In this document: one piece after another, positions 1,239 through 21,060 of the stretch
How positions within the stretch are numbered: position 1 is the first letter of the stretch
Layout of the letters: each line of letters starts with the position of its first letter
Source: Gammaproteobacteria bacterium HGW-Gammaproteobacteria-1
GTDB taxonomy: Bacteria; Pseudomonadota; Gammaproteobacteria; Thiohalomonadales; Thiohalomonadaceae
NCBI GenBank assembly: GCA_002840095.1
Contig: PGZL01000010.1
Location: 62,001-126,000, forward strand
Direction: 5' to 3'
Length of the DNA stretch: 64,000 bases
Program-made: the position numbers and the translations under genes
Notes under the pieces: model-generated
What the model was told of the DNA's origin: nothing
Seen by the model: only the letters and a program-made list of their open reading frames with translations
The model's database searches: none

Positions 1239-2240
1239 ATGAGCGTTAATTCCACTGGTGTACCGCTGTTTGCCGGCATCGAACCCCTGGACGACATGTT
1301 CATGGCGACGATGGAGGAGATGGACAAGGAAGTCGAGAACCTGATCGACATCAAGGACCCCGTCTACCAGTACCTGAAGAAGCACAACCTGATCGAGCTG
1401 CGCGACGAGATCAACACCCACGTCCCGGTCAAGCTGATGGACAAGCCCAACAGCACGGTCAAGGACTTCGCCCACTACGACGACGTGGACAACACCCCGC
1501 AGGACGTGCTGAGCGAGGCGAAGTTCGCCTACGGCCACATCGTCGGCACCCAGATGTACTCGCGCGAGGAGCTGGTGAAGAACTCCGGCAAGGCGCAGAT
1601 GATCGACCTGGTGGAAACCAAGACCGAGCAGCTGCAAACCTCGATGACCAACCACTTTAGCGAGCGCCTGAAGGGTACGCAGGACGCCGACGGCCGCAGC
1701 ATGATGGGCCTCGGCCGGATCATGACCTTCGACGCCGCCTGCGGCGGCATCGACCCGACCGCCGCAGGCTTCGGCTACTGGAACCCGCAGCGCGGACTCA
1801 AGGCGGGCGGCGGCCAGTTCGCCCTTGCCACCGAGATGCGCGCCGGACTGCGCCGCCTCACCCGCCTGTGCACGCAGCGTAATGATGCGCCGGACGTGCT
1901 CATCGCCGGCGAGGACGTGTACGACGCCATGCAGGCATGGGCGGAGGACAAGCTGCGCCTGAACCTGGGCGAACTGAAGCAGTCCTCCGGCTGGGGCGAC
2001 TTCGAGATGTTCGACTTCAACGGCCGCACCATCATCTACGACCCGGATATGGACGCCAAGACGGCCGAGCTGATCAACTTCAAGAAGTACGTCAAGGTCC
2101 GCATCCACCGCGGCACCAACTTCGTGTTGGAGCCGTGGCAGATGATGGAAAGCAAGGTGGCGAAGAAGCGCAACTGCCTGCTGTACGCCAGCGTGTACGT
2201 CAAGCGCCGCAACGCCAACGGCATCATCACCTTCTCCTAA
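1239..2240 (+). CDS. Phage major capsid protein
   Basis: A 333-residue protein of the size and style of HK97-fold major capsid proteins of short-tailed phages. It begins with a short extended arm, contains helix-rich segments such as TEQLQTSMTNHFSERLKGTQ near residue 130, a central Gly-rich loop (GLKAGGGQFA, about 188-197) and a C-terminal segment with many basic and aromatic residues. It follows the scaffold gene by 39 bp and precedes the head-tail joining genes, which is the conserved order. A ribosome-binding site (CGAGGAA) lies just upstream. It would form the icosahedral shell. The family call is from overall pattern and context. Confidence 0.8.
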   Translation: MSVNSTGVPLFAGIEPLDDMFMATMEEMDKEVENLIDIKDPVYQYLKKHNLIELRDEINTHVPVKLMDKPNSTVKDFAHYDDVDNTPQDVLSEAKFAYGHIVGTQMYSREELVKNSGKAQMIDLVETKTEQLQTSMTNHFSERLKGTQDADGRSMMGLGRIMTFDAACGGIDPTAAGFGYWNPQRGLKAGGGQFALATEMRAGLRRLTRLCTQRNDAPDVLIAGEDVYDAMQAWAEDKLRLNLGELKQSSGWGDFEMFDFNGRTIIYDPDMDAKTAELINFKKYVKVRIHRGTNFVLEPWQMMESKVAKKRNCLLYASVYVKRRNANGIITFS

Positions 2241-9957: not shown

Positions 9958-11106
9958 ATGGCTACCCCAACGTTCATGGACTACCTGGCCTACGGCCCGA
10001 AGGCCCGCGACAAAGTGCGCGCCCGCGACGAGGCCGCCGCCGCCCTGGAGCGCGCCAGGCTTCTGGAGGAGCTGCGCCTGACCAGCTCTCCCACCAGGCC
10101 GCAACAGACCGAGGACGGCTACAACATCGCCTTACCATCCACTGAGTTCAGCCCCGCAATGCAGGCTGAGCGCAACATCACCATGCAGCAGGCCGGACTG
10201 GATGCCGAGAAGATCGGCGAAGGCGAGATCGCCGCTACGCGCGCCGATGCTCTGCGCCGCGGCGTGGCCGGCATCGAGCAGAACAGCGGCGGGCTGGGCC
10301 AGGCGGTGGCGCTCGGCAACCTCGGCAACGACAAGGCGCTCACTGCGCCGGTCGCCTTGTCCGGCGGCGTGGCCTACAACCCCTATGATCCGGGGAACCC
10401 CATCGTCGGAGAAGCAAGCGCGGTGGATGCGCTTGCCAGGCTTCGCACCAGCCAGGCCGATACCGAGGACCTGCGCTATCAGGCACTGGCCGACGTGCTC
10501 CAGAGCGAGCAAACCAACCCCTTGTTGCGCGCCGATATCGCCAACAAGAAAACCACGCCCCGCCCCACGCGCGTCAAGGTGCGGCGCCAGGATGGCCAGG
10601 AGGTTTATATGGACGCCCGCCCCAATCTCCAGGGCGGGTGGGACTACAGCGAGGCCAAGGACACCGCAGGCACCGCCCTGCGCGTCCCGCCCAGCGCCAG
10701 CGGCGACGGGCGCACCGCTCTGCAGAAGGACACCGCCTTTATTTCCGACACGCTCGGCGTGCAGCCGGAGGAGGCGATCCTCTGGAAACTGCAGAGCAAG
10801 GCGAAGTCAGACGAGGCGCTGTGGAACGACATCGTGCTGCGCACCCGCTCCAGCCGCAAATATGCCGGCGCCGACGAGGTGCAAAATGAGTCGGCCGCCC
10901 TTTGGTCGATCATGCGCCCCGGCAAGGAGCCGCCGCCGCTCCAGCAGCAGATAACAGAAAGCCCGCCGCAGCAAGCCGCTACCAACTCACAAGACGACGC
11001 CCGCCGCCGCGCCGGCGCCGAGGGCTACACCAACCTGGGTCAGTGGGTCGAAGGCCGCGGCTTCGAGGTGCGCGAGGGCGGCAAGCTGATCGGGTATTAC
11101 TACTGA
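9958..11106 (+). CDS. Putative internal virion / ejection protein
   Basis: A 382-residue protein, starting 8 bp after the previous stop. The first 60 residues are a charged helix (ARDEAAAALERARLLEELRL), then Gly/Ala-rich helical stretches and a Lys/Arg patch near residue 200 (RPTRVKVRRQDGQEVYM). The last 90 residues are Gln/Pro-rich with a closing WVEGRGFEVREGGKLIGYYY motif. Its stop overlaps the start of the giant protein. Its position and helical, soluble nature fit the second of the ejected internal proteins of short-tailed phages. Confidence 0.45.
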   Translation: MATPTFMDYLAYGPKARDKVRARDEAAAALERARLLEELRLTSSPTRPQQTEDGYNIALPSTEFSPAMQAERNITMQQAGLDAEKIGEGEIAATRADALRRGVAGIEQNSGGLGQAVALGNLGNDKALTAPVALSGGVAYNPYDPGNPIVGEASAVDALARLRTSQADTEDLRYQALADVLQSEQTNPLLRADIANKKTTPRPTRVKVRRQDGQEVYMDARPNLQGGWDYSEAKDTAGTALRVPPSASGDGRTALQKDTAFISDTLGVQPEEAILWKLQSKAKSDEALWNDIVLRTRSSRKYAGADEVQNESAALWSIMRPGKEPPPLQQQITESPPQQAATNSQDDARRRAGAEGYTNLGQWVEGRGFEVREGGKLIGYYY

Positions 11107-14100
11107 TGCCCTTCGTCCCCGTTTCCGAGGGCGAGGAGCCGCGCCGCGGCTTCCGTCCTCTCACTGAATTTGAAGCCCCCAAGCGGGGCTTTACCCCTGT
11201 TCAGGCCGCTCCCGCACAACCCACGCCCGCACCGCCCGGCACCCCAAAAAACCTAGCCGAAAGTGCCATGCCAGGGGTGGAGCGGCCTGACATTGTTCCG
11301 CAGCCGCGCATCATGGTGGCGCCGGGGACGCGCCTCACCCCCCCCGAATCGGCGCTTCCCGAGAATCAGCCAAGTCTGCTGCCCTCATGGGCGCCCGAGG
11401 TCACGCCGAGCAATCCGGCACTGGCAGAGGCGCTATCTCCGCGCACCCCGCAGCGTTTGCCGGGGAAACTGCTGGAGGATATGCGCGCAGGCCGCCGCGA
11501 CATGAGCGACGAGGAGTACGGCGGATTGCTGCGCCAGGTGGAGAAAGGCACGATGTCTCTGTCACCGGAAGACCGCGCCCTGCTTCAGCTCCATCTTCCT
11601 GAAGCGTCGGCGGCAATCGAGCAGGCAGCACGCGTCAGCGCCATTCGCGGCACCGAGGCGATGCAGATACTGCCGGAAGGGGCGCTGCGCACCGGAATCG
11701 AGGGGCTTGTACGCGGCATGACGCTGAACAATGCCGACGCGTCTTTTCCGGTCACCAGCGGGGATGCGCAAGCCGACCAGCTATTCAGCGCCGCCAATCG
11801 TGCCGCCAATCTCGACGAGCAGGCCCGCCTGGCTGAGCACCCCATTGCCGGCTATGGCGGCGAGATGGCGGGCAGCCTGCTGCCGTTCGTCAAGGGCGTG
11901 CAGCTGTTGCGCGGTGTGCGCGCGGCGCGCGGACTGGCGCCAGTGGTGGAAACCCCGGGCGGATTCGTCGCCGAGGGCGCTACTGTCGGCACTCCCCTGG
12001 AGTTCCTGCGCAAGCCGGAGGGCGCGGAGCAGATGACCCGCGCCGAGGAAGCCGAGGCGCGCCTGTTGCAGGCCGGCGTCGGACTCACAGTTGGCGCTCT
12101 GGCCGACTTCACCACAGCCAGTGCCGCGCAGTATTTCGGCCGCTACATGGCGCGCCTGCGCGATGAGCGCGCAGGCGCGCTGCTCGAAGAGGAGGCGCTC
12201 TCCAAGGGCTTCGCTTCCACCGATGAATATGCCGCATCCCTGGTCGATATCGTCGAGACACAGGACGGCCTGATGGTTCGTCCGCGCATCGAGCCGGCGA
12301 GCGCCTTGCCGACAATAGAGCCTAAGCGCGGCTTCACCCCCATCGACGAAGCGCCGCCAGCAGTCGCCCAGGCCACCCCCATCGGGGAGTCCGTCGGCGT
12401 CATCCCTCCCTTCCGAAGGGAGCACGATCTGCGCTTAGATGCCTACGAGAGCAAGGCGCGGGAGCACGGCCTCACGCCGGAGCAGACGGAGGCCTTCCGC
12501 CCGGAGGAGACCAGCGATCACCTTACCGGATTACAGAGCCGCGCCGACCGGGAATCCACCCTCAACCGCGCCCTGGACTACGTCAACGAACACCCCGACG
12601 TGGACGGCCACTATGTCGCCCTCGACCTGGTCAATCTCGGCGGACTGAATGCCCACCTCGGCGAGCCTGGTGCGGACAAGGTGTTCCGCGCATTCGCCGA
12701 CATCATCCGCGAGGAGATGGAGCCGTTGCCTGGCCACGTCAATCTGTTCCGCCACGGCGGCGACGAGATGAGCGCGGTAGCCCTCGGCGTCGACCGCGGT
12801 GCACTCGCGCAGGCCCTGGAGCGCATCAACACCCGAGCCGCTGAGTACGCGCGTGCGCAGGGCCTCGATACTCTCCCGCACACCAAGGCGGGCAAGGAGG
12901 CCGGCACTGGTATAAACTTCGGGGTATCCCGGATTCGTTCTGGCGAGACGATCAGCCAGGCTCTCGAAAGAGCCCACGTCAATCTGGAGCTGATGAAGAA
13001 AGGAGCACGCGATGTCGACCTACACCTACCTGAAGGAGCGCGGCCGGCTGGATCTACTGGACCAGCCGGAGGAGTACGAGAAATTCCTGCGGGAACGACT
13101 GGCCGAGGTGAAGCGCCAGCAGGACGAGGCCCACGAGAAGGCGAAAGCGGGGCGTCTGGAGAAACACTAGGAGCAGGCTTTGAAATACGCTCGCCGGATC
13201 GAGGTTCTGCATATCGGCCGGGCGAGCCCGCCGCCGATCTCTTCCTTCCCCGTAACGCCGCCGACGCCGACCACGGCGCAGCTCTGCGCACTCTTGGCCG
13301 CACGGTTAAGCACGTTCAGACAGGCACCTTCCCCAGCGGCCTTTCTCGCGTTTCATCTGCTGCGGATGTCGCTCATGTTGTGGCGCCGATTCGGCGCGAT
13401 GCGCAGGAGTCCTTCCTCGCTGTCGTGACCAATGATGCCGGCGATGTTCTGCGCATCGCTCGGCTGCATCGTGGCGCGCAGGGCGCGGCCGCTGTGGACC
13501 CTGCCCTGGTCGCCGGCGCCATCACCAACACGCCGGGCGGCGCCCGCGCCTGGATTGCGCACAACCACCCGAGCGGTGCCGTGGCGCAGTCCGACGCAGA
13601 CCGCGCGCTCACCCTCCAGCTCGCCGGGCTGCTCGACGGCACCGGCACCCGCTTGGAGGGCGGGGTGGTGATCGGCCCCGGTGGTCGCGTGCATTCCGCC
13701 TTCGCACCCGACGGGCGGGAGATGACCGGCCCCACCCGCGCAGCACCGCGCAAGGAGGCCCTGCCCGTCACCGAACGCCGCCTTACCGGCGGCGAGCCCA
13801 CCAGCAAGCCCCTGGAGTCGCCGGAGGCCGCCCACGCCGCCCTGAAGCAACACGGCAAGGACAAGGAGGGCGCGCTGCTCCTGGACGATGACAACCGCCC
13901 TGTGGGCTTTGTGGAACTGAGCGCCGCCGAGATGCGCGAGCTGCGCAGCGGCAAGGGAGGCGGTTCTGACCGTTTGCTCTCCGCCCTGGACCAGACCAAC
14001 GCCAGCGGATTCATCGTGCGCGCCAATTCTCCGGCCGCCGCAGGCAACATGCACGCCTTTGCCGAAGCCACAGGCCGCACCTTGGTGGACGTGATCGACA

Positions 14101-17100
14101 GCGCCGGCAACAGCCTGCGCACCAAGGGGGATCTGCCCACGCAGTCCACCTTCTACGCCAATCCGTTCTGGGTGGCCGGGCGTGAGTTTGCCAAGGACAT
14201 CGGCGCCCATCCCGGCCGCGCTGCCGCCGAGGCCTTCAGTGGAGCCGTGGCCGGCGCCACGCTCTCCGACGAGGAGCCGGGCAGCGCCCGCTGGTGGCTG
14301 GACGTGGCCGCAGGCGCGGCTGGCAGCGCCATTCTGTTCAACGCCGCCCGCGGCACCCGTCTGCTGGGACCGGGCAGCATCGCCGACAATGCGCGTCTGC
14401 GCCTGGGGCAGTGGGTCGAAGGCTTGCCGCTTATCGGCCGCGGCCCGGCCGAGTTGCGCGAACTGAAGACCAAGCAGCGCCTGATGCGGCAGATCATCGA
14501 CCGCCAGACCGAACAGGTGGGCAAGCACCTGGCCGAGAAGTTCACGCCGGCCGAGCGCGCCATGATGGCCGACCTCATCGAGCGCCGCGGCATCGTCAAG
14601 GACCTGAACATCATCCACCGCCAGGCGCAGGCGCTGGACGACTACCTGACCCAGATCACCCGCCGCATGAAGGAGCTGAAGATGTTGCCGGCGGAGATGG
14701 AGGAGGGCGGCTACCTGCACCGCTACTACGCCAAGCACCTGGGCTTGGACAAGGCGTTCATGAAGGCCAAGGGGCAGAGCCTGGCCGGCTCCTACACTAT
14801 TGCACGCGGCACCGACGACGTGTTCCAGCGCGAGTTCCTGAGCCCCGGCGCGGCCCGCCTGGTGGACGAGTTCGACCGCCTGAAGGCAGAGGTCGACAAG
14901 ATCGAGCGCAAGGCCGCGGACAAGCTGGACGCCACCGGCCTCGAAGGCCTGGTCGGCATGAAGGCCAGGCTGCGCCAGATCGGCAAGGTGGAGTTGCACG
15001 AGTACGTCGGCGAGCAGAACGGGCAGGTGCGCTCGTTCATCTTCGCCGGCGACGAGGTTCCTCGCTCGCCCGTCGAAATCCCCGGAACCAGGTTGGCAAA
15101 ACCAGACGGAGTTCCGCGGGCCGGCGAGCGTCCATCACACCTGGATAACAATACCGGTTTGAGCATTCCAGGGACGCAACACCTGTCCCCGACCGCACGC
15201 CGCTGGGGTGTGCGCGGCAGCAACAAGGATGGCGTACTACTGCACCGCGACTGGACCAAGGCCGAGCGCCAAAGCTGGGGCGAGATCGACGACGCAGGTT
15301 ACCGCTACGTGCGCGGCATGGCCGAGGCCTCGCACGACATGAGCCTGGCCACGCTGTTTGACACCGTCGCCCGACATGGCGAATGGGTCAGCGATGCACC
15401 GCGCAGCAGCAAGGGTAAAGACTGGGTTGAGGTCCCCAAGTCCAGGGTGAACAAGAACAGCCCGCTCCAGAAGTACGGCGCCCTGGCCGGCAAGTATGTG
15501 CGCCCCGACGTGTGGAACGGCATCAGTAACTACGGCCGCGCGCCGTTCGCCTCCGGCCCCATCGGCAACGTGTACCGCGACCTGCTCGCCCGCTGGAAGC
15601 TGTACAAGACCGTCTACAACCCGGTAACCCACTTCAACAACACCTGGTCGAACGTCGAGATGCTGCATATGGCCGGCTATTCGGCGCGCGACCTGGGCGA
15701 CGGCATCAGGCACCTGATCCAGGGAGAGAAGAGCGCCGTATGGCGCGAGGCGCGCGATTCCGGCCTGTTCGGGACCGACTGGGGCAGCTCCCTGCTGAAG
15801 AGCAGCGAGGGCGGCCATAACCGCGCCCTGGAAGAGCTGGCGGAGCAGCTGCGCACGCAGCCTGACATCCCGGATGCCGCCGTGTCCGCCTCGGCCGTGA
15901 TGCGCCTCAAGGAGTGGTGGATCAACAGCCGCAATGCCGTCGCAGGCGCGCCCACCCGGATGGGCAGCGGCGCCGAGCTGGCCAAAGCCATGGGGCGCCC
16001 CGCCATCGCAGGCCTGCGGTTTCTCAAGAAGCCGGTGGACGTGGCCGCGCATAGCGCGCAGAAGCTGTACCGCATGGAAGACGAGGTGTTCAAACTGTCC
16101 GTGTTCAGCGCCCAGCGCCGGCGCGGCGCGGCTCCAGACGTGGCCGCGCGCGAGGCGCAGGCATTCTTCTTCGACTACAATGACCTGCCTGAAGGCGTTA
16201 AGATCATCCGCGATTTCCCCGTCGGCGTGCCCTTCATCAGCTACACCTACTTTGCCATACCAGCTATTGCGCGCAACGCCGTGCAACACCCCGAGCGCAT
16301 GCTGGCCATCGCCGCAGCGTACGAGGCGATGAATTACGCCGCTCTGGTGCACGACGGCATGGGACCGGGTGAATACTGGGCGACGGCAGAGGCTGAGGAT
16401 ACGGTATCTCCACCCTGGGAGCGCGGACGCGCTCTGTGGGGCGCCCGCAACACCATCCACCTGCCCAGTCCGGAGGGCTACCGTCTCTCCCTCGGCCGCG
16501 CCCACGCCCTGGGAAACCCATTCATGGATGAAGCCGGCGGCCGCGAGAAGCTGCCCACCGTGCCCTACGTCGCCAACTTCTGGGGCTCGTCGGTGTTCGG
16601 CGGCAACCCGCTGCACTCCATCCTGGACGTGATGGCAAACGAGGACTGGAAGGGCAAGGAAATCTACGCGCCCGGCGCCCCGCAGGAAGAGAAGATCCGC
16701 GCCGCCGCCGCCTACCTGTACCAAGCATGGACCCCCAGCAACCCGGCGGTGCCAGGCAGCTACCACCAGCAGCGCGTCGTCGAGGGGCTGGCCAACGACA
16801 AGCGCCAGGCAGAGGCCGCCGGCGAAAAGCCTGGCCTGGCCGGCGCCGTGGTCGACGCCGCCAACGACACCGCCGCACTGCTCGGCCTGCAGGGCTTCAC
16901 CGGCCTCGATCGCATGGGCAACGAGGTACTGACCCGCGACGCGCTGGCGGCCAGCTTCGGCGTCAAGTTGCGGCCGATACGCTGGGCAATGGGGCAGGAG
17001 TTCGAGAGCGCCCGTATGGACCGGGAGATACAGGACAAGGAACGGTTCCTGGATGCCGAGGCCCGCAAAAAGTCGGAGCAGCGCATCACACCGGAGCGGT

Positions 17101-17210
17101 TCGAGGAGATGCGCCAGGCCACCTTGGAAGGGATAAACGAGGCCCTGGCCGAGCAGCGCAAGCGCGACCAGGCCAAGACCAAACTGGAACAGCAGGGCCG
17201 GTGGCGCTAG
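11106..17210 (+). CDS. Giant polyvalent virion protein with GGDEF-like and JAB domains
   Basis: A 2034-residue protein; ATG 11106 overlaps the preceding TGA, and the frame open further upstream runs over the previous gene. The N-terminal ~460 residues are a Pro-rich linker and helical stretches with repeated PKRGFTP motifs (residues 25-31 and 406-412; PRRGFRP at 12-18). Residues about 470-636 form a GGDEF-type domain: DHLTGL at 471, Asp507, Asn515, Asp524, GGDEM at 551-555. A Gly-rich linker follows. A RadC-like JAB domain (about 740-850) holds Glu768, HNHPSG at 819-824 and SDAD at 829-832. A second, degenerate JAB-like unit spans about 900-1010. The remaining ~1000 residues are helical with hydrophobic stretches, typical of large ejection proteins. 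It is probably packaged and injected; that is inference. Confidence 0.75.
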   Translation: MPFVPVSEGEEPRRGFRPLTEFEAPKRGFTPVQAAPAQPTPAPPGTPKNLAESAMPGVERPDIVPQPRIMVAPGTRLTPPESALPENQPSLLPSWAPEVTPSNPALAEALSPRTPQRLPGKLLEDMRAGRRDMSDEEYGGLLRQVEKGTMSLSPEDRALLQLHLPEASAAIEQAARVSAIRGTEAMQILPEGALRTGIEGLVRGMTLNNADASFPVTSGDAQADQLFSAANRAANLDEQARLAEHPIAGYGGEMAGSLLPFVKGVQLLRGVRAARGLAPVVETPGGFVAEGATVGTPLEFLRKPEGAEQMTRAEEAEARLLQAGVGLTVGALADFTTASAAQYFGRYMARLRDERAGALLEEEALSKGFASTDEYAASLVDIVETQDGLMVRPRIEPASALPTIEPKRGFTPIDEAPPAVAQATPIGESVGVIPPFRREHDLRLDAYESKAREHGLTPEQTEAFRPEETSDHLTGLQSRADRESTLNRALDYVNEHPDVDGHYVALDLVNLGGLNAHLGEPGADKVFRAFADIIREEMEPLPGHVNLFRHGGDEMSAVALGVDRGALAQALERINTRAAEYARAQGLDTLPHTKAGKEAGTGINFGVSRIRSGETISQALERAHVNLELMKKGARDVDLHLPEGARPAGSTGPAGGVREIPAGTTGRGEAPAGRGPREGESGASGETLGAGFEIRSPDRGSAYRPGEPAADLFLPRNAADADHGAALRTLGRTVKHVQTGTFPSGLSRVSSAADVAHVVAPIRRDAQESFLAVVTNDAGDVLRIARLHRGAQGAAAVDPALVAGAITNTPGGARAWIAHNHPSGAVAQSDADRALTLQLAGLLDGTGTRLEGGVVIGPGGRVHSAFAPDGREMTGPTRAAPRKEALPVTERRLTGGEPTSKPLESPEAAHAALKQHGKDKEGALLLDDDNRPVGFVELSAAEMRELRSGKGGGSDRLLSALDQTNASGFIVRANSPAAAGNMHAFAEATGRTLVDVIDSAGNSLRTKGDLPTQSTFYANPFWVAGREFAKDIGAHPGRAAAEAFSGAVAGATLSDEEPGSARWWLDVAAGAAGSAILFNAARGTRLLGPGSIADNARLRLGQWVEGLPLIGRGPAELRELKTKQRLMRQIIDRQTEQVGKHLAEKFTPAERAMMADLIERRGIVKDLNIIHRQAQALDDYLTQITRRMKELKMLPAEMEEGGYLHRYYAKHLGLDKAFMKAKGQSLAGSYTIARGTDDVFQREFLSPGAARLVDEFDRLKAEVDKIERKAADKLDATGLEGLVGMKARLRQIGKVELHEYVGEQNGQVRSFIFAGDEVPRSPVEIPGTRLAKPDGVPRAGERPSHLDNNTGLSIPGTQHLSPTARRWGVRGSNKDGVLLHRDWTKAERQSWGEIDDAGYRYVRGMAEASHDMSLATLFDTVARHGEWVSDAPRSSKGKDWVEVPKSRVNKNSPLQKYGALAGKYVRPDVWNGISNYGRAPFASGPIGNVYRDLLARWKLYKTVYNPVTHFNNTWSNVEMLHMAGYSARDLGDGIRHLIQGEKSAVWREARDSGLFGTDWGSSLLKSSEGGHNRALEELAEQLRTQPDIPDAAVSASAVMRLKEWWINSRNAVAGAPTRMGSGAELAKAMGRPAIAGLRFLKKPVDVAAHSAQKLYRMEDEVFKLSVFSAQRRRGAAPDVAAREAQAFFFDYNDLPEGVKIIRDFPVGVPFISYTYFAIPAIARNAVQHPERMLAIAAAYEAMNYAALVHDGMGPGEYWATAEAEDTVSPPWERGRALWGARNTIHLPSPEGYRLSLGRAHALGNPFMDEAGGREKLPTVPYVANFWGSSVFGGNPLHSILDVMANEDWKGKEIYAPGAPQEEKIRAAAAYLYQAWTPSNPAVPGSYHQQRVVEGLANDKRQAEAAGEKPGLAGAVVDAANDTAALLGLQGFTGLDRMGNEVLTRDALAASFGVKLRPIRWAMGQEFESARMDREIQDKERFLDAEARKKSEQRITPERFEEMRQATLEGINEALAEQRKRDQAKTKLEQQGRWR
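13012..13170 (+). CDS. Nested small ORF overlapping the giant gene
   Basis: A 52-codon ORF in the +1 frame relative to the giant gene. It starts at ATG 13012 with AAGGAG centred about 9 bases upstream and ends at TAG 13168-13170. The product begins MSTYTYLKERGRLDLL and continues as a highly charged helix (EEYEKFLRERLAEVKRQQDE). It looks like a genuine small helical protein. The giant protein's own product over the same bases is a low-complexity Gly/Pro/Ala/Arg linker, as expected when one frame is constrained and the other is tolerated. It may be a real overlapping gene. Confidence 0.5.
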   Translation: MSTYTYLKERGRLDLLDQPEEYEKFLRERLAEVKRQQDEAHEKAKAGRLEKH

Positions 17211-17386
17211 GTCACCGTCCTGAAAAGGCGCCGCACCTGTTCGTGCAGCCTGGCCATGTCGCCAGACCTGATGCGCTTCCGCAATAGCCGCATATCACGC
17301 CCCCCAAGAGATGCCAAGACATCGACCAAGGCGGCCACGTCGCCTGCGATAACAGCCCGCTGCTTTTTTGTTGTTTGGTATTCCAT
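17207..17386 (-). CDS. Small basic protein at the prophage end, unknown
   Basis: A 59-residue minus-strand ORF whose stop overlaps the stop of the giant gene. ATG at 17386 has GAGGG about 8 bases upstream. The product is basic and helical (VAALVDVLASLGGRDMRLL and RLHEQVRRLF). It is the only minus-strand gene in the prophage part of the window and is divergent from the lipoprotein gene, with a 73-bp gap that could hold both promoters. No family is recognised; a small regulator or cargo gene is possible. Confidence 0.5.
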   Translation of the reverse strand: MEYQTTKKQRAVIAGDVAALVDVLASLGGRDMRLLRKRIRSGDMARLHEQVRRLFRTVT

Positions 17387-17459
17387 TGACAAACCCTCAT
17401 AATTGCGTTCGCCGCTCCTTGCGGCATGTCAGGTATCGACAGATCAGGAGGTCGACCAC

Positions 17460-18068
17460 ATGGATACACTCCCTTGTCCCTTAATACGGGCCTTGTTTTT
17501 GGCGCTCCTGGCGCTGGCCGTCGGGTGCAGTTCCACCCCAGCGAAGGTCTATCAATCTGTTCCCAGCGCAAAGGTCTCCCGCGTCGTGCTGGCGATCGAT
17601 AACCGCGATGCCACGGGCGACCTTTCGCAAAACCCGATCTTGTTTGAGATGGTGCGAACAGACGCCGTAGCCCGCCTCAAGACAGCGGGGTATGCGGTGA
17701 CAGAGATAGGCGACATGGTGGTAAACGACGACTGGCTGAACGCCGTCAGTGGCGACGGCTACACCCACATTCTCTATGCCCACTTCTCGCCGAGCAGCGA
17801 AACAACGAAGGTCGCAACGGATGCCTCCGGCAGGGTATACAGCTACCAGGCTGTTGATGTTCCGCTTCGCTGCAGCCTGCTCACGGTGCCGGAGAAGAAG
17901 ATGCTTGCTCAGACGACGGTGAACGCCATCACGAGAGGGAAAAGCCAGTTCGATCTAGCCATGGAGAGAGTGAATCCCGTGCCGCCTGAAGTCGTGTACG
18001 CAGAGGCCATCGAATACGCATGCAAGAGCGTTCTCGATGCGATGCACGGGGACCGCTCCGGGACGTAA
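17460..18068 (+). CDS. Predicted lipoprotein, prophage cargo
   Basis: A 202-residue protein with a strong AGGAGG site 8 bases before ATG 17460. Residues 1-23 form a signal peptide ending in the lipobox LAVGC, so it should be lipidated at Cys23. The mature part is a compact alpha/beta domain with no family I can name. It lies alone between the virion genes and the attachment site, where phages often keep lysogenic-conversion genes such as superinfection-exclusion lipoproteins. That role is inferred from position only. Confidence 0.7.
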   Translation: MDTLPCPLIRALFLALLALAVGCSSTPAKVYQSVPSAKVSRVVLAIDNRDATGDLSQNPILFEMVRTDAVARLKTAGYAVTEIGDMVVNDDWLNAVSGDGYTHILYAHFSPSSETTKVATDASGRVYSYQAVDVPLRCSLLTVPEKKMLAQTTVNAITRGKSQFDLAMERVNPVPPEVVYAEAIEYACKSVLDAMHGDRSGT

Positions 18069-18168
18069 TGTAAAGCGCCTGGAACACTCAATGCACCACA
18101 TGAACAAAAAACACTAGGCACGGAATGTAAGGTGTTGATCTGATAGTTCCAAAACAGGCGCGCGCAGA

Positions 18169-18214
18169 GTTCGTAATCAGTAGGTCGGAGGTTCGACTCC
18201 TCTCAACGGCACCA
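18169..18214 (+). other. attR: 3' half of a tRNA-Thr(CGU) gene
   Basis: The bases read as the second half of a tRNA. The anticodon loop TTCGTAA is at 18170-18176 (anticodon CGT, Thr) and the 3' anticodon-stem strand TCAGT follows at 18177-18181. The T-arm stem is at 18187-18191 and 18199-18203 around the loop TTCGACT. The acceptor strand is 18204-18210, then A and an encoded CCA at 18212-18214. No matching 5' half precedes it: the anticodon stem lacks its partner. This is the usual product of phage integration into a tRNA 3' end, so it marks attR, and the intact tRNA should lie at attL left of the window. E. coli thrW, also tRNA-Thr(CGU), is a known integration site. Confidence 0.85.
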
Positions 18215-18369
18215 ATTTTCGCGGCCATCGCGCCGCTGCCCGTGTTAATCTTGTGCGGCCCCGAACGCAGTGGTTCGCGGCATCGGGTTCAGGGACGGCC
18301 CCTTGTTACCCTCCGTGTGTCGACCTTGTGGAACTGCGGTATGACCTCGGTAATGAGGCTGCAATTCCT

Positions 18370-20910
18370 ATGGCAAAACCCGGTGAACTGCGGGCGCCCC
18401 TGGCAGGGGAGCCGAGCCTGAATTCTCTGCTGTCCTCCGACGTGTCCATCGGACAGATCGTCAAACCCTTCATACTCGAGTGTCCCCCCGAATTACCGCT
18501 GTTCGAGGCCGCGCGCCGCATGAGCGAGGCTCGGGTCAGCTCCATCCTGGTGATGGACGGCGATGTGGTGCTGGGGATCTGGACCGAGCGCGACGCCCTG
18601 CTGGTTGATTTCGACGATCCCGCAGCATTTACCCGCCCGGTGCGCGAGGTGATGAGCGCACCGGTGCGTACGGTGGATGTCGCGCTCGGCCTGCAGGAAC
18701 TGGCCGTCAAGTTCCGTGAAGAGCATGTGCGCCACTATCTGGTAACGGACGCCGCCGGCGCTCGTCGCGGCATCGTGTCGCAGACCGATGTCGTGCTCAA
18801 CCAGGGTATCGAGCACTACCTGCGCTTGCGCAGTGTCGATTCGGTGGTGCGCAGCGGGCTGCAGTCCCTGCCCGAGACGGCGACCCTGGCGCAGGTGGCC
18901 GCCCTGATGCGGCAGGCGGTGACCGATGCGGTGGTGGTGAGTTACGCCGACGGCAGTTGGGGCATTCTGACTGAACGCGATGTCGTGCGCCTGGTTGCGC
19001 AGAAGTGCGGCAACGAATTTGCGGGCGGGCTGGCCAGCCGACCGTTGCTCACCGTGGGGCAGCGCACCAGCCTGTATCGCGTCCGCGCCATGCTGAGTGA
19101 AAGCAAACTGCGACACATCGGTGTATTGGGCGATGACGGCGCTCTCGCCGGTGTGGTGAGCTTCAGCGACATCCTGAGCGGGATGGAGCTGGTTTATGTG
19201 CAGGAACTGCAACATGCCCTGCGGGATCGCGATGAAGCGCTCAACGTCTCGCAGCGCAATCTCCATCTGGCGGAAAGAGTCATCGAGAGTTCGCTTGAGG
19301 GCATCATGGTGACCGACGAGCACTCGGTCATCATTTCGGTCAACCCGGCCTTCACCCGTCTCACCGGCTACGGCGCGGGCGAGGTGGTGGGCAATACGCC
19401 GGCGATGCTCAGTTCCGGCCGGCACGACAAGGCCTTTTACGATGCCATGTGGGACTCGTTGCGACAGACCGGGTATTGGCAGGGCGAGGTATGGAACAGA
19501 CGCAAGAGCGGCGAGATATTCCCCGAGTTGCTGACCATCGCCGCCATAAGGAACCGCGAGGGCAGATTGACCCACTACGCGGCGCTGTTCAGCGACATCA
19601 CGGAAATGAAGGAAAACGAGGAGCGCATCCGCCACCTGGCCTACTACGATGTGCTCACCGGCCTGCCCAATCGCCGCCTGCTGGAGGACCGGCTGCGTGT
19701 GGCGCTGGCCCATGCCCATCGCAACCGGCGACAACTGGCGGTACTGTTCATCGATCTCGACCGCTTCAAACGCATCAACGACAGTCTCGGTCATGAGGTG
19801 GGTGACCGCCTGCTGGTGGCCGTCGCCCATCGCCTGCGCAATGTGCTGCGCGAGGATGACACCGTGGCGCGCATGGGGGGCGATGAATTCGTCGCCGTGC
19901 TGAGCGACATCGAAAGTCCGGATCATGCAGTACAAATCGCGCTCCGCCTGATCGGGGCGCTGATGTGCCCGGTGCGGGTCGACGAGCATGAGCTGGTGGT
20001 CACCACCAGTGTCGGCATCAGCATCTATCCAGATGACAGCGATTCGGCCCTGGCATTGGTGAAAAATGCGGATATCGCCATGTATCGCGCCAAGGACAGC
20101 GGCCGCAACAGCTTCCAACTCTACGCCCCGGCGATGAATGCCCGTTCACTGGAACACCTGGCGCTGGAGAGTGCCCTGCATCGTGCGCTGGAGCGGGGCG
20201 AATTCGAACTGTATTACCAGCCGCTGCTCGATGCCGGTCACTGCCGCATCGTGGCGGCCGAGGCCCTGCTGCGCTGGCACCACCCCGAGCTGGGCCTGGT
20301 CGCTCCGGCCGACTTCATTCCCCTGGCGGAGGAAACCGGGCTGATCATTCCCATCGGCGCATGGGTGCTGCGCAGCGCCTGCCTGCAGCTGGCGCAGTGG
20401 CACGCCCAGGGACACCGCGACCTGCGCGTTGCAGTCAATATTTCCGCGCGCCAGTTCCATGACCCGGATTTCATTACGCTGGCCGGGCGTATCGTTGGGG
20501 AGGCCGGAATCGACCCGCGCCACATCACTCTGGAGCTGACCGAAAGCATGCTGATGGACGATGCGCTGGATACCATCCGTATGCTGGCGCAGCTGCACAA
20601 CATGGGCTTTGCCATCGCCATGGACGACTTTGGTACCGGCTACTCGTCGTTGAGCTATCTAAAACGGTTCCCCATCAACGAGTTGAAGGTCGATCGCGTA
20701 TTCATTCGTGATATCGAACGCAGTGCGGAAGATGCCGCCATCGTTTCCGCCATTATCGGCCTGGCTCACAGCCTGGGCCTGCGCGTGGTGGCCGAGGGCG
20801 TGGAAACGGCGTCGCAGCTCACTTTCCTGCAACAGCAGGGCTGTGACTTTCTGCAGGGGTTTCACTTCAGTCCGCCGGTGGCGGTGGGGGAGTTTGATAG
20901 ATTGCTGTAA
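18370..20910 (+). CDS. CBS-CBS-PAS-GGDEF-EAL cyclic-di-GMP enzyme
   Basis: About 846 residues from ATG 18370 (GAGG upstream); a longer in-frame start at 18253 is possible. Order: four CBS motifs forming two Bateman modules (residues about 25-285), a short coiled segment, a PAS domain (about 305-430), GGDEF with an intact MGGDEF (GGDEF at 503-507) and EAL with AEALLRWH (EAL at 631-633). The EAL part also keeps DDFGTGYSS and the VxxxGVE region, so both activities look competent. It makes or degrades c-di-GMP in response to a ligand bound by the CBS pair, probably a nucleotide. It has no transmembrane helix. Its stop is followed at once by a heptamer repeat. Confidence 0.9.
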   Translation: MAKPGELRAPLAGEPSLNSLLSSDVSIGQIVKPFILECPPELPLFEAARRMSEARVSSILVMDGDVVLGIWTERDALLVDFDDPAAFTRPVREVMSAPVRTVDVALGLQELAVKFREEHVRHYLVTDAAGARRGIVSQTDVVLNQGIEHYLRLRSVDSVVRSGLQSLPETATLAQVAALMRQAVTDAVVVSYADGSWGILTERDVVRLVAQKCGNEFAGGLASRPLLTVGQRTSLYRVRAMLSESKLRHIGVLGDDGALAGVVSFSDILSGMELVYVQELQHALRDRDEALNVSQRNLHLAERVIESSLEGIMVTDEHSVIISVNPAFTRLTGYGAGEVVGNTPAMLSSGRHDKAFYDAMWDSLRQTGYWQGEVWNRRKSGEIFPELLTIAAIRNREGRLTHYAALFSDITEMKENEERIRHLAYYDVLTGLPNRRLLEDRLRVALAHAHRNRRQLAVLFIDLDRFKRINDSLGHEVGDRLLVAVAHRLRNVLREDDTVARMGGDEFVAVLSDIESPDHAVQIALRLIGALMCPVRVDEHELVVTTSVGISIYPDDSDSALALVKNADIAMYRAKDSGRNSFQLYAPAMNARSLEHLALESALHRALERGEFELYYQPLLDAGHCRIVAAEALLRWHHPELGLVAPADFIPLAEETGLIIPIGAWVLRSACLQLAQWHAQGHRDLRVAVNISARQFHDPDFITLAGRIVGEAGIDPRHITLELTESMLMDDALDTIRMLAQLHNMGFAIAMDDFGTGYSSLSYLKRFPINELKVDRVFIRDIERSAEDAAIVSAIIGLAHSLGLRVVAEGVETASQLTFLQQQGCDFLQGFHFSPPVAVGEFDRLL

Positions 20911-21060
20911 GAAAGTTTCGAGTTTGGAGTTTCGAAAAACCACGACACAATTTTGCCGAAACTCGAAACTCGAAACTCGAAACTCGAAACTCGAAACTCG
21001 AAACTCGAAACTCGAAACTCGAAACTCGAAACTCGAAACTCGAAACTCGAACTCGAAACT
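20911..21060. repeat. GAAACTC-type repeat element between convergent genes
   Basis: From 20957 to 21060 the 7-bp unit CGAAACT is repeated about 15 times: 13 perfect copies, one 6-bp copy and a final one. At 20914-20935 an imperfect inverse arm (AGTTTCGAGTTTGGAGTTTCG) faces it, so the element can fold into a long hairpin. It begins right after the stop of the GGDEF-EAL gene and runs into the TAG stop of nadC. It may act as a two-way transcription barrier. The perfect tandem run should be length-variable between strains. Confidence 0.85.

What the first reader, a model, noticed from the sequence alone, without database searches (positions are those of the whole stretch)
12516..13016. GGDEF-type nucleotide-cyclase domain inside a giant phage virion protein
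Residues about 470-636 of the 2034-residue virion protein carry DHLTGL, Asp507, Asn515, Asp524 and GGDEM at 551-555. The 8- and 17-residue spacings of Asn and Asp from the first Asp equal those of the diguanylate cyclase PleD (metal Asp, then guanine contacts). The signature ends in Met instead of Phe, and the RxxD inhibition site is absent. A virion-borne cyclase that is ejected into a cell rich in c-di-GMP enzymes (at least four in this window) would be an unusual way to reprogramme the host. It could also make another cyclic nucleotide.
Basis: partly seen in the sequence, partly recalled or inferred. Interest (0 to 1): 0.88.

Follow-up and report, generated by a model that had tools for sequence, protein, structure and literature searches.

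The report
Phage-injected GGDEF cyclase effector domain
A giant protein of a bacterial virus carries an enzyme-like domain built to make signalling nucleotides, and the same unusual version of that domain turns up as cargo of bacterial injection machines, so it is probably a shared injected effector rather than an ordinary signalling enzyme.

Summary
Residues 470-635 of the 2,034-aa ORF (11106-17207) score as a GGDEF domain (Pfam E 1.8e-12, twice the cut-off), and an AlphaFold model (pLDDT 95) superposes on solved diguanylate cyclases at Z 19-21. The ORF ends the late gene block of a prophage and also carries a RadC/JAB domain. That is the architecture of phage 'polyvalent proteins', for which Iyer et al. 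2017 (PMC5512222) already reported GGDEF domains; a virion-borne cyclase is therefore not a new idea.

What seems new is the domain's kind. It belongs to a separate clade (split 100/99, with its two motifs left in or out) with NLGGLN where canonical enzymes have FKxxN. The canonical Lys is lost in 22 of 22 intact copies, a clade-specific HxK is gained, metal Asp and GGDE are kept. The clade occurs in 10 viral contigs, mostly in giant proteins, and in bacterial proteins, 2 of 11 fused to the eCIS_core domain of contractile injection systems, one inside an eCIS locus. Five pair it with a dead copy; three look like lipoproteins.

Best reading: an injected nucleotide-cyclase effector. Activity, product and presence in the virion are untested.

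The parts
11106..17210 (+). Giant polyvalent-type phage protein, 2,034 aa plus stop
   Evidence: follows the late genes on the same strand
12411..12512 (+). N-terminal extension of the cassette (residues 436-469; F(R/K)...R..F/Y...A...GL-like pattern)
   Evidence: BLAST alignments with 7 relatives start at 434-437; the pattern is a visual judgement
12513..13010 (+). GGDEF domain of the NLGG clade (residues 470-635)
12624..12650 (+). DLVNLGGLN (507-515): metal Asp507, Gly512 in place of the canonical Lys, Asn515
12756..12770 (+). GGDEM signature (551-555)
12876..12887 (+). PHTK (591-594): clade-specific His592 and Lys594 in a segment where the 17 canonical rows have a gap
   Evidence: (rows there mislabelled H599/K601), numbering corrected
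12996..12998 (+). Lys631, aligned with the conserved Lys (PleD K442, recalled numbering) of canonical enzymes
13353..13697 (+). RadC-like JAB domain (residues 750-864; HNHPSG at 819-824)
   Evidence: E 2.1e-11; related stretch in a conjugative plasmid, (E 3e-11)
15201..16274 (+). C-terminal region (residues 1366-1723) shared with a 2,044-aa giant protein of Helicobacter pullorum prophages
   Evidence: (21.9% identity, E 5e-9)
9958..11106 (+). Upstream 382-aa ORF whose stop overlaps the start of the giant ORF; no family match
1239..2240 (+). Major head protein of the prophage
   Evidence: phrog_9953, E 4.6e-23

Best explanation
The giant protein is an ejected, polyvalent-type internal virion protein of a (probably short-tailed) prophage. 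Residues about 436-635 are a self-contained effector cassette: a short extension plus a GGDEF-fold nucleotide cyclase of a distinct 'NLGG' clade. Inferred mechanism: the protein enters the host with the DNA; the cassette binds GTP through Asn515, Asp524, Lys631 and metal held by Asp507 and GGDE, with Lys594 perhaps taking over from the lost Lys at position 512; dimers make c-di-GMP or a related cyclic (di)nucleotide, without RxxD product inhibition. The signal then either shifts the host's c-di-GMP programme or interferes with nucleotide-based defence early in infection. The same cassette is fused to an eCIS cargo domain in at least two bacterial proteins. Shown here by computation: domain identity, predicted fold, clade, conserved residues, gene context, domain architecture and eCIS fusions. 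Inferred: presence in the virion, ejection, catalysis, product and effect.
For: Pfam GGDEF and RadC. Model pLDDT 95.0; Z 19-21 to WspR, GcbC, DgcB and PleD. Clade split 100/99 from 19 other GGDEF rows, and again 100/99 with its two motif stretches removed and 20 host GGDEFs added. In 22 intact copies: metal Asp 22, GGDE 22, Asn 20, second guanine Asp 16 plus 4 Asn, Lys631 position 20, Lys594 position 22 (some motifs were used to collect the set). Ten distinct IMG/VR contigs, 8 of 10 in ORFs of at least 1,900 codons; LPD38, LPD22, LPD1, LPD5, InPase, Kinase-PolyVal or ART-PolyVal in 6 of the 8 of these proteins scanned whole or in part; tail or virion families among flanking genes of 3 of 5 loci examined. 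Prophage order primase, terminase, portal, head protein, giant ORF. eCIS_core fused in L043 and L044; L044 lies with Pvc16_N, AAA and sheath genes.
Against: No activity or virion data. The canonical Lys is lost in all 22 intact copies and the Arg446 position is not kept (kept as Arg in only 2 of 17 canonical rows in that alignment, so that column is unreliable), so triphosphate handling probably differs. Three relatives (L040, L041, L045) look like lipoproteins (own reading), where no GTP is expected. No HExxH peptidase motif that could release the domain was found in this ORF. The C-terminal part did not match LPD38. Phage and bacterial members do not form separate clades, and the place of the window copy inside the clade is unresolved. 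Only 2 of 11 bacterial members have eCIS_core in the same protein.
Confidence: 0.57

Rival explanations
1. The NLGG clade is a true cyclase but its product is not c-di-GMP (a cNMP, a hybrid or a linear/cyclic oligonucleotide), made by an asymmetric dimer.
For: Lys to Gly in 21 of 22 intact copies and to Asn in the other, against Lys in 17 of 17 canonical rows. Five bacterial proteins (L039, L042, L046, L048, L049) pair one intact and one degenerate copy, which a symmetric two-GTP reaction would not favour.
Against: The guanine-contact Asn and Asp are mostly kept; 9 of the 10 viral proteins gave one domain match and could form symmetric dimers (one search lists a second, weaker row number for L035 and L036 that did not pass the printed limit); L047 has two copies that both keep GGDEF; no product data.
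Confidence: 0.3
2. The domain binds a nucleotide (GTP, ppGpp or c-di-GMP) but does not catalyse: a sensor, sponge or structural module.
For: Canonical Lys lost; degenerate copies are common (6 of 28 rows); lipoprotein-like members; LapD and FimX GGDEF structures are also near structural matches.
Against: Metal Asp and GGDE are kept in intact copies from at least five phyla and from phages at 30-38% identity to the window copy, while the dead copies have lost GGDE. GGDE was in part a selection criterion, so this weighs less than it looks.
Confidence: 0.25
3. An ordinary host diguanylate cyclase domain picked up by the prophage as lysogenic cargo.
For: The host is rich in GGDEF domains (70 matches).
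Against: The domain lies outside 24 GGDEFs of its own genome in the tree (20 sampled plus 4 of the window). With the clade HMM the 20 sampled host GGDEFs score at most 39 bits, the window copy 191 (it is one of the HMM's seeds). It sits in a late-region giant protein.
Confidence: 0.04

Closest known systems
GGDEF-bearing polyvalent proteins (Iyer et al. 2017, PMC5512222; e.g. the Acetonema longum prophage-derived protein named there)
   Same: Giant multidomain protein, GGDEF linked to unrelated enzymatic domains; phage versions lie near late virion genes and are proposed to be delivered at infection (passages).
   Different: That protein combines GGDEF with SWI2/SNF2, methyltransferase, zincin and ART domains. 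Here GGDEF goes with RadC, which the paper lists only for conjugative-element polyvalent proteins, and no zincin was found. The paper's main text does not contain 'NLGG' or 'eCIS'; whether its GGDEFs belong to this clade was not tested.
Canonical diguanylate cyclases (PleD, WspR, DgcB)
   Same: Fold (Z 19-21), metal Asp, guanine Asn and Asp, GGDE, Lys442 position.
   Different: FKxxN replaced by NLGGLN, Lys332 position Gly, clade-specific HxK, no RxxD site, short extension in front.
Solo phage GGDEF proteins of Yuavirus and Vojvodinavirus phages (MP1412, CN2; PMC8471281, passages seen)
   Same: Phage-coded GGDEF; lysogens of one such phage (LK3) are reported as hyperbiofilm formers.
   Different: 152-156 aa separate genes upstream of the terminase; Pfam covers only the first 87-100 of 161 positions.
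eCIS-associated toxins with DUF4157/eCIS_core (PMC11297309, passages seen; PMC8213781, search listing only)
   Same: L043 and L044 carry the same NLGG cassette C-terminal to eCIS_core.
   Different: The window protein has no eCIS_core. The main text of PMC11297309 holds neither 'cyclase' nor 'diguanylate'.

Membership tests
GGDEF domain superfamily (PF00990) | Profile score above the curated cut-off | tested here: met
   47.7 bits against 23.8
GGDEF domain superfamily (PF00990) | GGDEF/palm fold | tested here: met
   First model: Foldseek E 1e-11 to 6ttr. Second model: the first 14 rows have Z 20-21, 152-160 residues, rmsd 1.8-2.7. Predicted, not solved
GGDEF domain superfamily (PF00990) | GG(D/E)E signature and metal Asp | tested here: met
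   GGDEM 551-555, Asp507; fifth position varies in the clade
Canonical diguanylate cyclase | Conserved Lys of the FK motif (PleD K332, recalled numbering) | tested here: not met
   Gly512; Gly in 21 and Asn in 1 of 22 intact clade copies, Lys in 17 of 17 canonical rows
Canonical diguanylate cyclase | Guanine-contact Asn and Asp | tested here: met
   Asn515, Asp524
Canonical diguanylate cyclase | Synthesis of c-di-GMP from GTP | not testable with these tools
   needs purified protein
Phage polyvalent protein | Very long polypeptide with unrelated enzymatic domains | tested here: met
   2,034 aa with GGDEF and RadC
Phage polyvalent protein | Gene near late virion genes | tested here: met
   terminase, portal, major head protein upstream on the same strand
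Phage polyvalent protein | Large-polyvalent-associated domain such as LPD38 | tested here: inconclusive
   No LPD in the Pfam scan; comparison of two-row profiles negative; two relatives have LPD38
Phage polyvalent protein | Presence in the virion and delivery into the cell | not testable with these tools
   needs particle proteomics
eCIS-associated effector (eCIS_core/DUF4157) | eCIS_core domain in the same protein or genome | tested here: not met
   none in the protein; no match in G000 (18 of 27 candidates scored)

The most novel reading that the evidence does not exclude
The NLGG clade is an undescribed family of injected nucleotide cyclases used as interchangeable cargo by two delivery routes, phage ejection proteins and extracellular contractile injection systems. 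It has a reworked triphosphate site (Lys lost, HxK gained) and pseudo-heterodimeric members, and makes a product other than c-di-GMP that acts on the recipient cell.
Probability: 0.3. Interest if true: 0.86.

Novelty: new variant of a known kind. Interest (0 to 1): 0.62.

Why it matters
It turns a brief remark in print (GGDEF in polyvalent proteins) into a defined, testable domain family with a diagnostic motif and a small cassette of about 200 residues. Phages are reported to counter nucleotide-based defence by depleting its messengers (abstract of PMC12657218, seen in the listing); a virion that brings in a signal-making enzyme would be a different strategy and could act before any phage gene is expressed. 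Its use beside an eCIS cargo domain suggests that a cyclase can serve as a delivered effector. Whether the altered active site makes c-di-GMP or something else can be settled with one purified domain.

Tried and rejected
Close relatives of the whole protein: single-protein scans of IMG/VR with the domain and with the C-terminal half found none; none of the 94 other related genomes sampled has the C-terminal half at E 1e-5. tblastn of the domain against 50,697 phage records gave one record below E 0.01, MT836213.1, whose other genes look bacterial (own reading), so it was not counted as phage evidence. An LPD38 match of the C-terminus was tested by profile comparison and not found. Attachment sites: no exact match of 12 or more bases between the first 3 kb of L002 and window 16501-18500 and no tRNA in L002, so the prophage ends are not fixed.

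Prevalence scans with the clade profile at E 1e-20: 1 of 398 genomes of the host's phylum (its own), 1 of 292 of the phylum of L044 (its own genome) and 2 of 295 of the genus of L046 (the two already known). These scored at most 8, 12 and 11 candidates per genome, so they are lower bounds; they also found no further eCIS fusion.

Mended step: I picked the reading frames of 20 added host GGDEFs by length, and several were wrong. One search repeats that tree with the frames. Its support for the clade is 100/99 (100% of 200 bootstrap trees) instead of 95/92; I use.

Rows left out: L056 (clade-like, with an insertion) from trees and residue counts. L015, L017 and L022 were not counted as clade; L015 and L022 entered the trees as 'other' and fall beside the clade (30 rows, 99/92) but beside the canonical rows. 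Loci L016, L018-L021, L023-L026, L037, L038, L061, L064 and L066-L070 were not used in the trees. L011-L014 duplicate L027, L029, L032 and L035.

Circularity: relatives were fetched with patterns containing NLGG or FR(H/K)GGDE, and the 21 HMM seeds were required to hold an NLGG-like motif and GGDE, so conservation of those letters is partly by selection. Positions not used in selection (second guanine Asp, HxK, Lys631, Gly519) and the tree without the motif columns are the independent evidence.

Full report
1. Observation. The ORF 11106-17207 (+) encodes 2,034 residues without a stop. Its ATG overlaps the stop of the preceding ORF (TGATG), so the start is well placed. At E up to 1, Pfam finds GGDEF at 470-635 (E 1.8e-12, 47.7 bits, cut-off 23.8) and a RadC-like JAB domain at 750-864 (E 2.1e-11); the one other match, DUF7739, is below its cut-off. 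Three PHROG families of unknown function match the GGDEF stretch. In the host genome this is the weakest of the near-full-length GGDEF matches among 70 (53.5 bits).

2. Context. The window is bases 62001-126000 of contig C29. Upstream and on the same strand lie a primase, a large terminase, a portal (PHROG E 1.6e-5; P22_portal in Pfam below cut-off) and a major head protein; an integrase and a ParB-like gene lie on the other strand at the left. Among the prophage proteins scanned (10, 10, some in both) no tail-tube, sheath or tape-measure family matched, which fits a short-tailed phage (inference). The giant ORF is the last large ORF before what looks like host sequence. Its C-terminal region resembles a 2,044-aa protein downstream of the terminase in Helicobacter pullorum prophages (21.9% identity, E 5e-9). 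The part around RadC (residues 762-1016) resembles an unannotated stretch of a conjugative plasmid just before a zincin-type gene (30.5%, E 3e-11).

3. Fold. A first model with four canonical window GGDEFs as alignment had pLDDT 83; a second with 20 clade relatives had pLDDT 95.0 and pTM 0.89. VIA-align with the second gives Z 21 for WspR, GcbC and DgcB and about 19 for PleD, far above the level of chance matches that the tool states. The clade profile matches 37 distinct PDB sequences at E 0.001, none above 41 bits, which suggests that no member of the clade is solved.

4. A separate clade. Pattern-based scans with small alignments found relatives in IMG/VR and in the species genomes. Ten of 12 loci (10 distinct contigs) and 12 of 32 loci (L039-L049, and L056, which has an insertion) hold the NLGG domain. 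A profile built from 21 intact copies scores the intact copies 77-215 bits, the degenerate ones 93-121, and every other GGDEF tested at most 54: 17 canonical, 2 of the second phage type and 20 of the host. The tree separates 28 clade rows from 19 others with support 100/99. With 20 further host GGDEFs added and the two motif stretches removed the split is again 100/99 (the earlier run, with some wrong frames, gave 95/92). Inside the clade the tree is largely unresolved; phage and bacterial copies are mixed.

5. Residues (22 intact, 6 degenerate, 17 canonical rows). Metal Asp507: 22/22. Asn515: 20/22. Asp524: 16 Asp and 4 Asn of 22. GGDE: 22/22, fifth position F 15, M 3, others 4. Position of PleD Lys332 (numbering and role recalled): Gly 21, Asn 1, against Lys 17/17 in canonical rows. 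Lys631: 20/22. His592 and Lys594 (mislabelled H599 and K601; corrected): 21/22 and 22/22, in a segment where the 17 canonical rows have a gap. A stretch of about 35-40 residues before the domain follows a loose shared pattern in phage, eCIS-fused and lipoprotein-like members; a simple pattern match caught only 11 of 28 rows, so this is a visual judgement, supported by BLAST alignments that start at residues 434-437 for seven relatives.

6. Where the clade occurs. (a) Viral giants: 8 of 10 contigs have the domain in ORFs of at least 1,900 codons (L031 has 868; L036 is cut by the locus end and its copy is degenerate). Of the 8 viral proteins scanned with Pfam (L027, L028, L030-L034, L036), LPD38 was found in L028 and L034, LPD22 in L032 and L036, InPase, LPD5, LPD1 and Kinase-PolyVal in L027, ART-PolyVal in L030; L031 and L033 showed GGDEF alone, and in L030 and L036 Pfam itself did not report GGDEF. 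Two flanking genes each of five loci were scanned: tail fibre, tail or virion structural families in L028, L032 and L033, a helicase loader in L034, nothing in L030. (b) eCIS: L043 (Duganella) and L044 (Nostoc) carry eCIS_core N-terminal to the domain; 9 other bacterial members do not. L044 lies with two Pvc16_N genes, an AAA ATPase and a sheath gene about 9 kb away. L043 has a transposase next to it, and no eCIS genes were shown beside it. eCIS_core occurs in 7 of the 11 genomes (one at the cut-off) and a sheath over the cut-off in 5 of 11, against eCIS_core in 26 of 299 genomes of the window host's phylum; the phyla differ, so this control is rough. L046, L048 and L049 have LQR/LQK-xxGNxAV-like stretches near the N-terminus that I associate with eCIS proteins from memory. 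(c) L040, L041 and L045 begin with an apparent lipobox signal (own reading). (d) L039, L042, L046, L048 and L049 pair an intact and a degenerate copy; L047 has two copies that both keep GGDEF.

7. Interpretation. The domain is not a host signalling enzyme that strayed into a phage; it is best read as a delivered-protein version of GGDEF. Keeping of the metal and GGDE residues in intact copies argues for catalysis; the lost Lys argues for an altered reaction or altered triphosphate binding. I put about 0.6 on catalytic activity and leave c-di-GMP against another product open. Intact-plus-dead pairs resemble the pseudo-heterodimers of class III cyclases (recalled analogy). The lipoprotein-like members do not fit any cytoplasmic role and stay unexplained.

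8. Literature. Iyer et al. 2017 (PMC5512222; passages seen) describe GGDEF in polyvalent proteins as 'not very widespread', name a prophage-derived example, and propose interference with host nucleotide responses or activation of a response against rivals; they list RadC for conjugative elements only. A GGDEF gene in Yuavirus-type phages and hyperbiofilm lysogens of LK3 are reported in PMC8471281 (passages). Searches: polyvalent protein with GGDEF (3 of 3 papers listed), phage or prophage diguanylate cyclases (25 of 142 listed), YuA-type GGDEF (15 of 1,814 listed), eCIS with GGDEF (12 of 50 listed, none of these with GGDEF in the text), DUF4157 with GGDEF (no paper), contractile injection with diguanylate cyclase (12 of 695 listed), GGDEF with ejection or injected proteins (12 of 187 listed) and polymorphic toxins with GGDEF (3 of 3 listed). 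In what was listed I saw no description of the eCIS link or of the NLGG clade; only openly licensed papers are held, and most listings were read as titles and abstract openings.

9. Verdict. Observation confirmed; the concept is in print since 2017; the domain is a new variant, with an unexpected link to contractile injection systems. The odds changed only slightly on checking (best explanation 0.57).

Noticed in passing
L015 4222-6642, L017 4225-6648, L022 2554-6537: A second phage GGDEF type (MDLNDLKxLN or MDGNNFKALN, keeping the Lys) in 807-1,328-codon stop-to-stop frames of IMG/VR contigs; L015 and L022 fall beside the NLGG clade (99/92) and beside canonical rows.
   Followed up: partly
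L040 9764-10507, L041 9746-10528, L045 9785-10513: Apparent lipoproteins of about 245-260 aa in which the only Pfam match is an NLGG GGDEF with intact signature; no GTP is expected outside the cytoplasm.
   Followed up: no
L039, L042, L046, L048, L049 (ORFs): Tandem NLGG domains, one with GGDE intact and one degenerate, in five proteins from at least three phyla.
   Followed up: partly
L007 7938-8408, L008 7950-8408: GGDEF genes of Yuavirus-type phages match only the first 87-100 of 161 Pfam positions, so they may be truncated or not classical cyclases.
   Followed up: no
window 13353-13697: RadC-like JAB domain in a phage-type giant protein, although Iyer et al. list RadC only for conjugative-element polyvalent proteins; its relative in plasmid NZ_CP100552.1 lies in an unannotated stretch just before a zincin gene.
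   Followed up: partly
window 20957-21060: Fifteen copies of a 7-base repeat (CGAAACT) just downstream of the GGDEF-EAL gene 18253-20910.
   Followed up: no
L004 (MT836213.1): A record labelled Bacteriophage sp. whose genes look like those of a bacterial chromosome (own reading); other GGDEF hits in the same record series may be similar.
   Followed up: no
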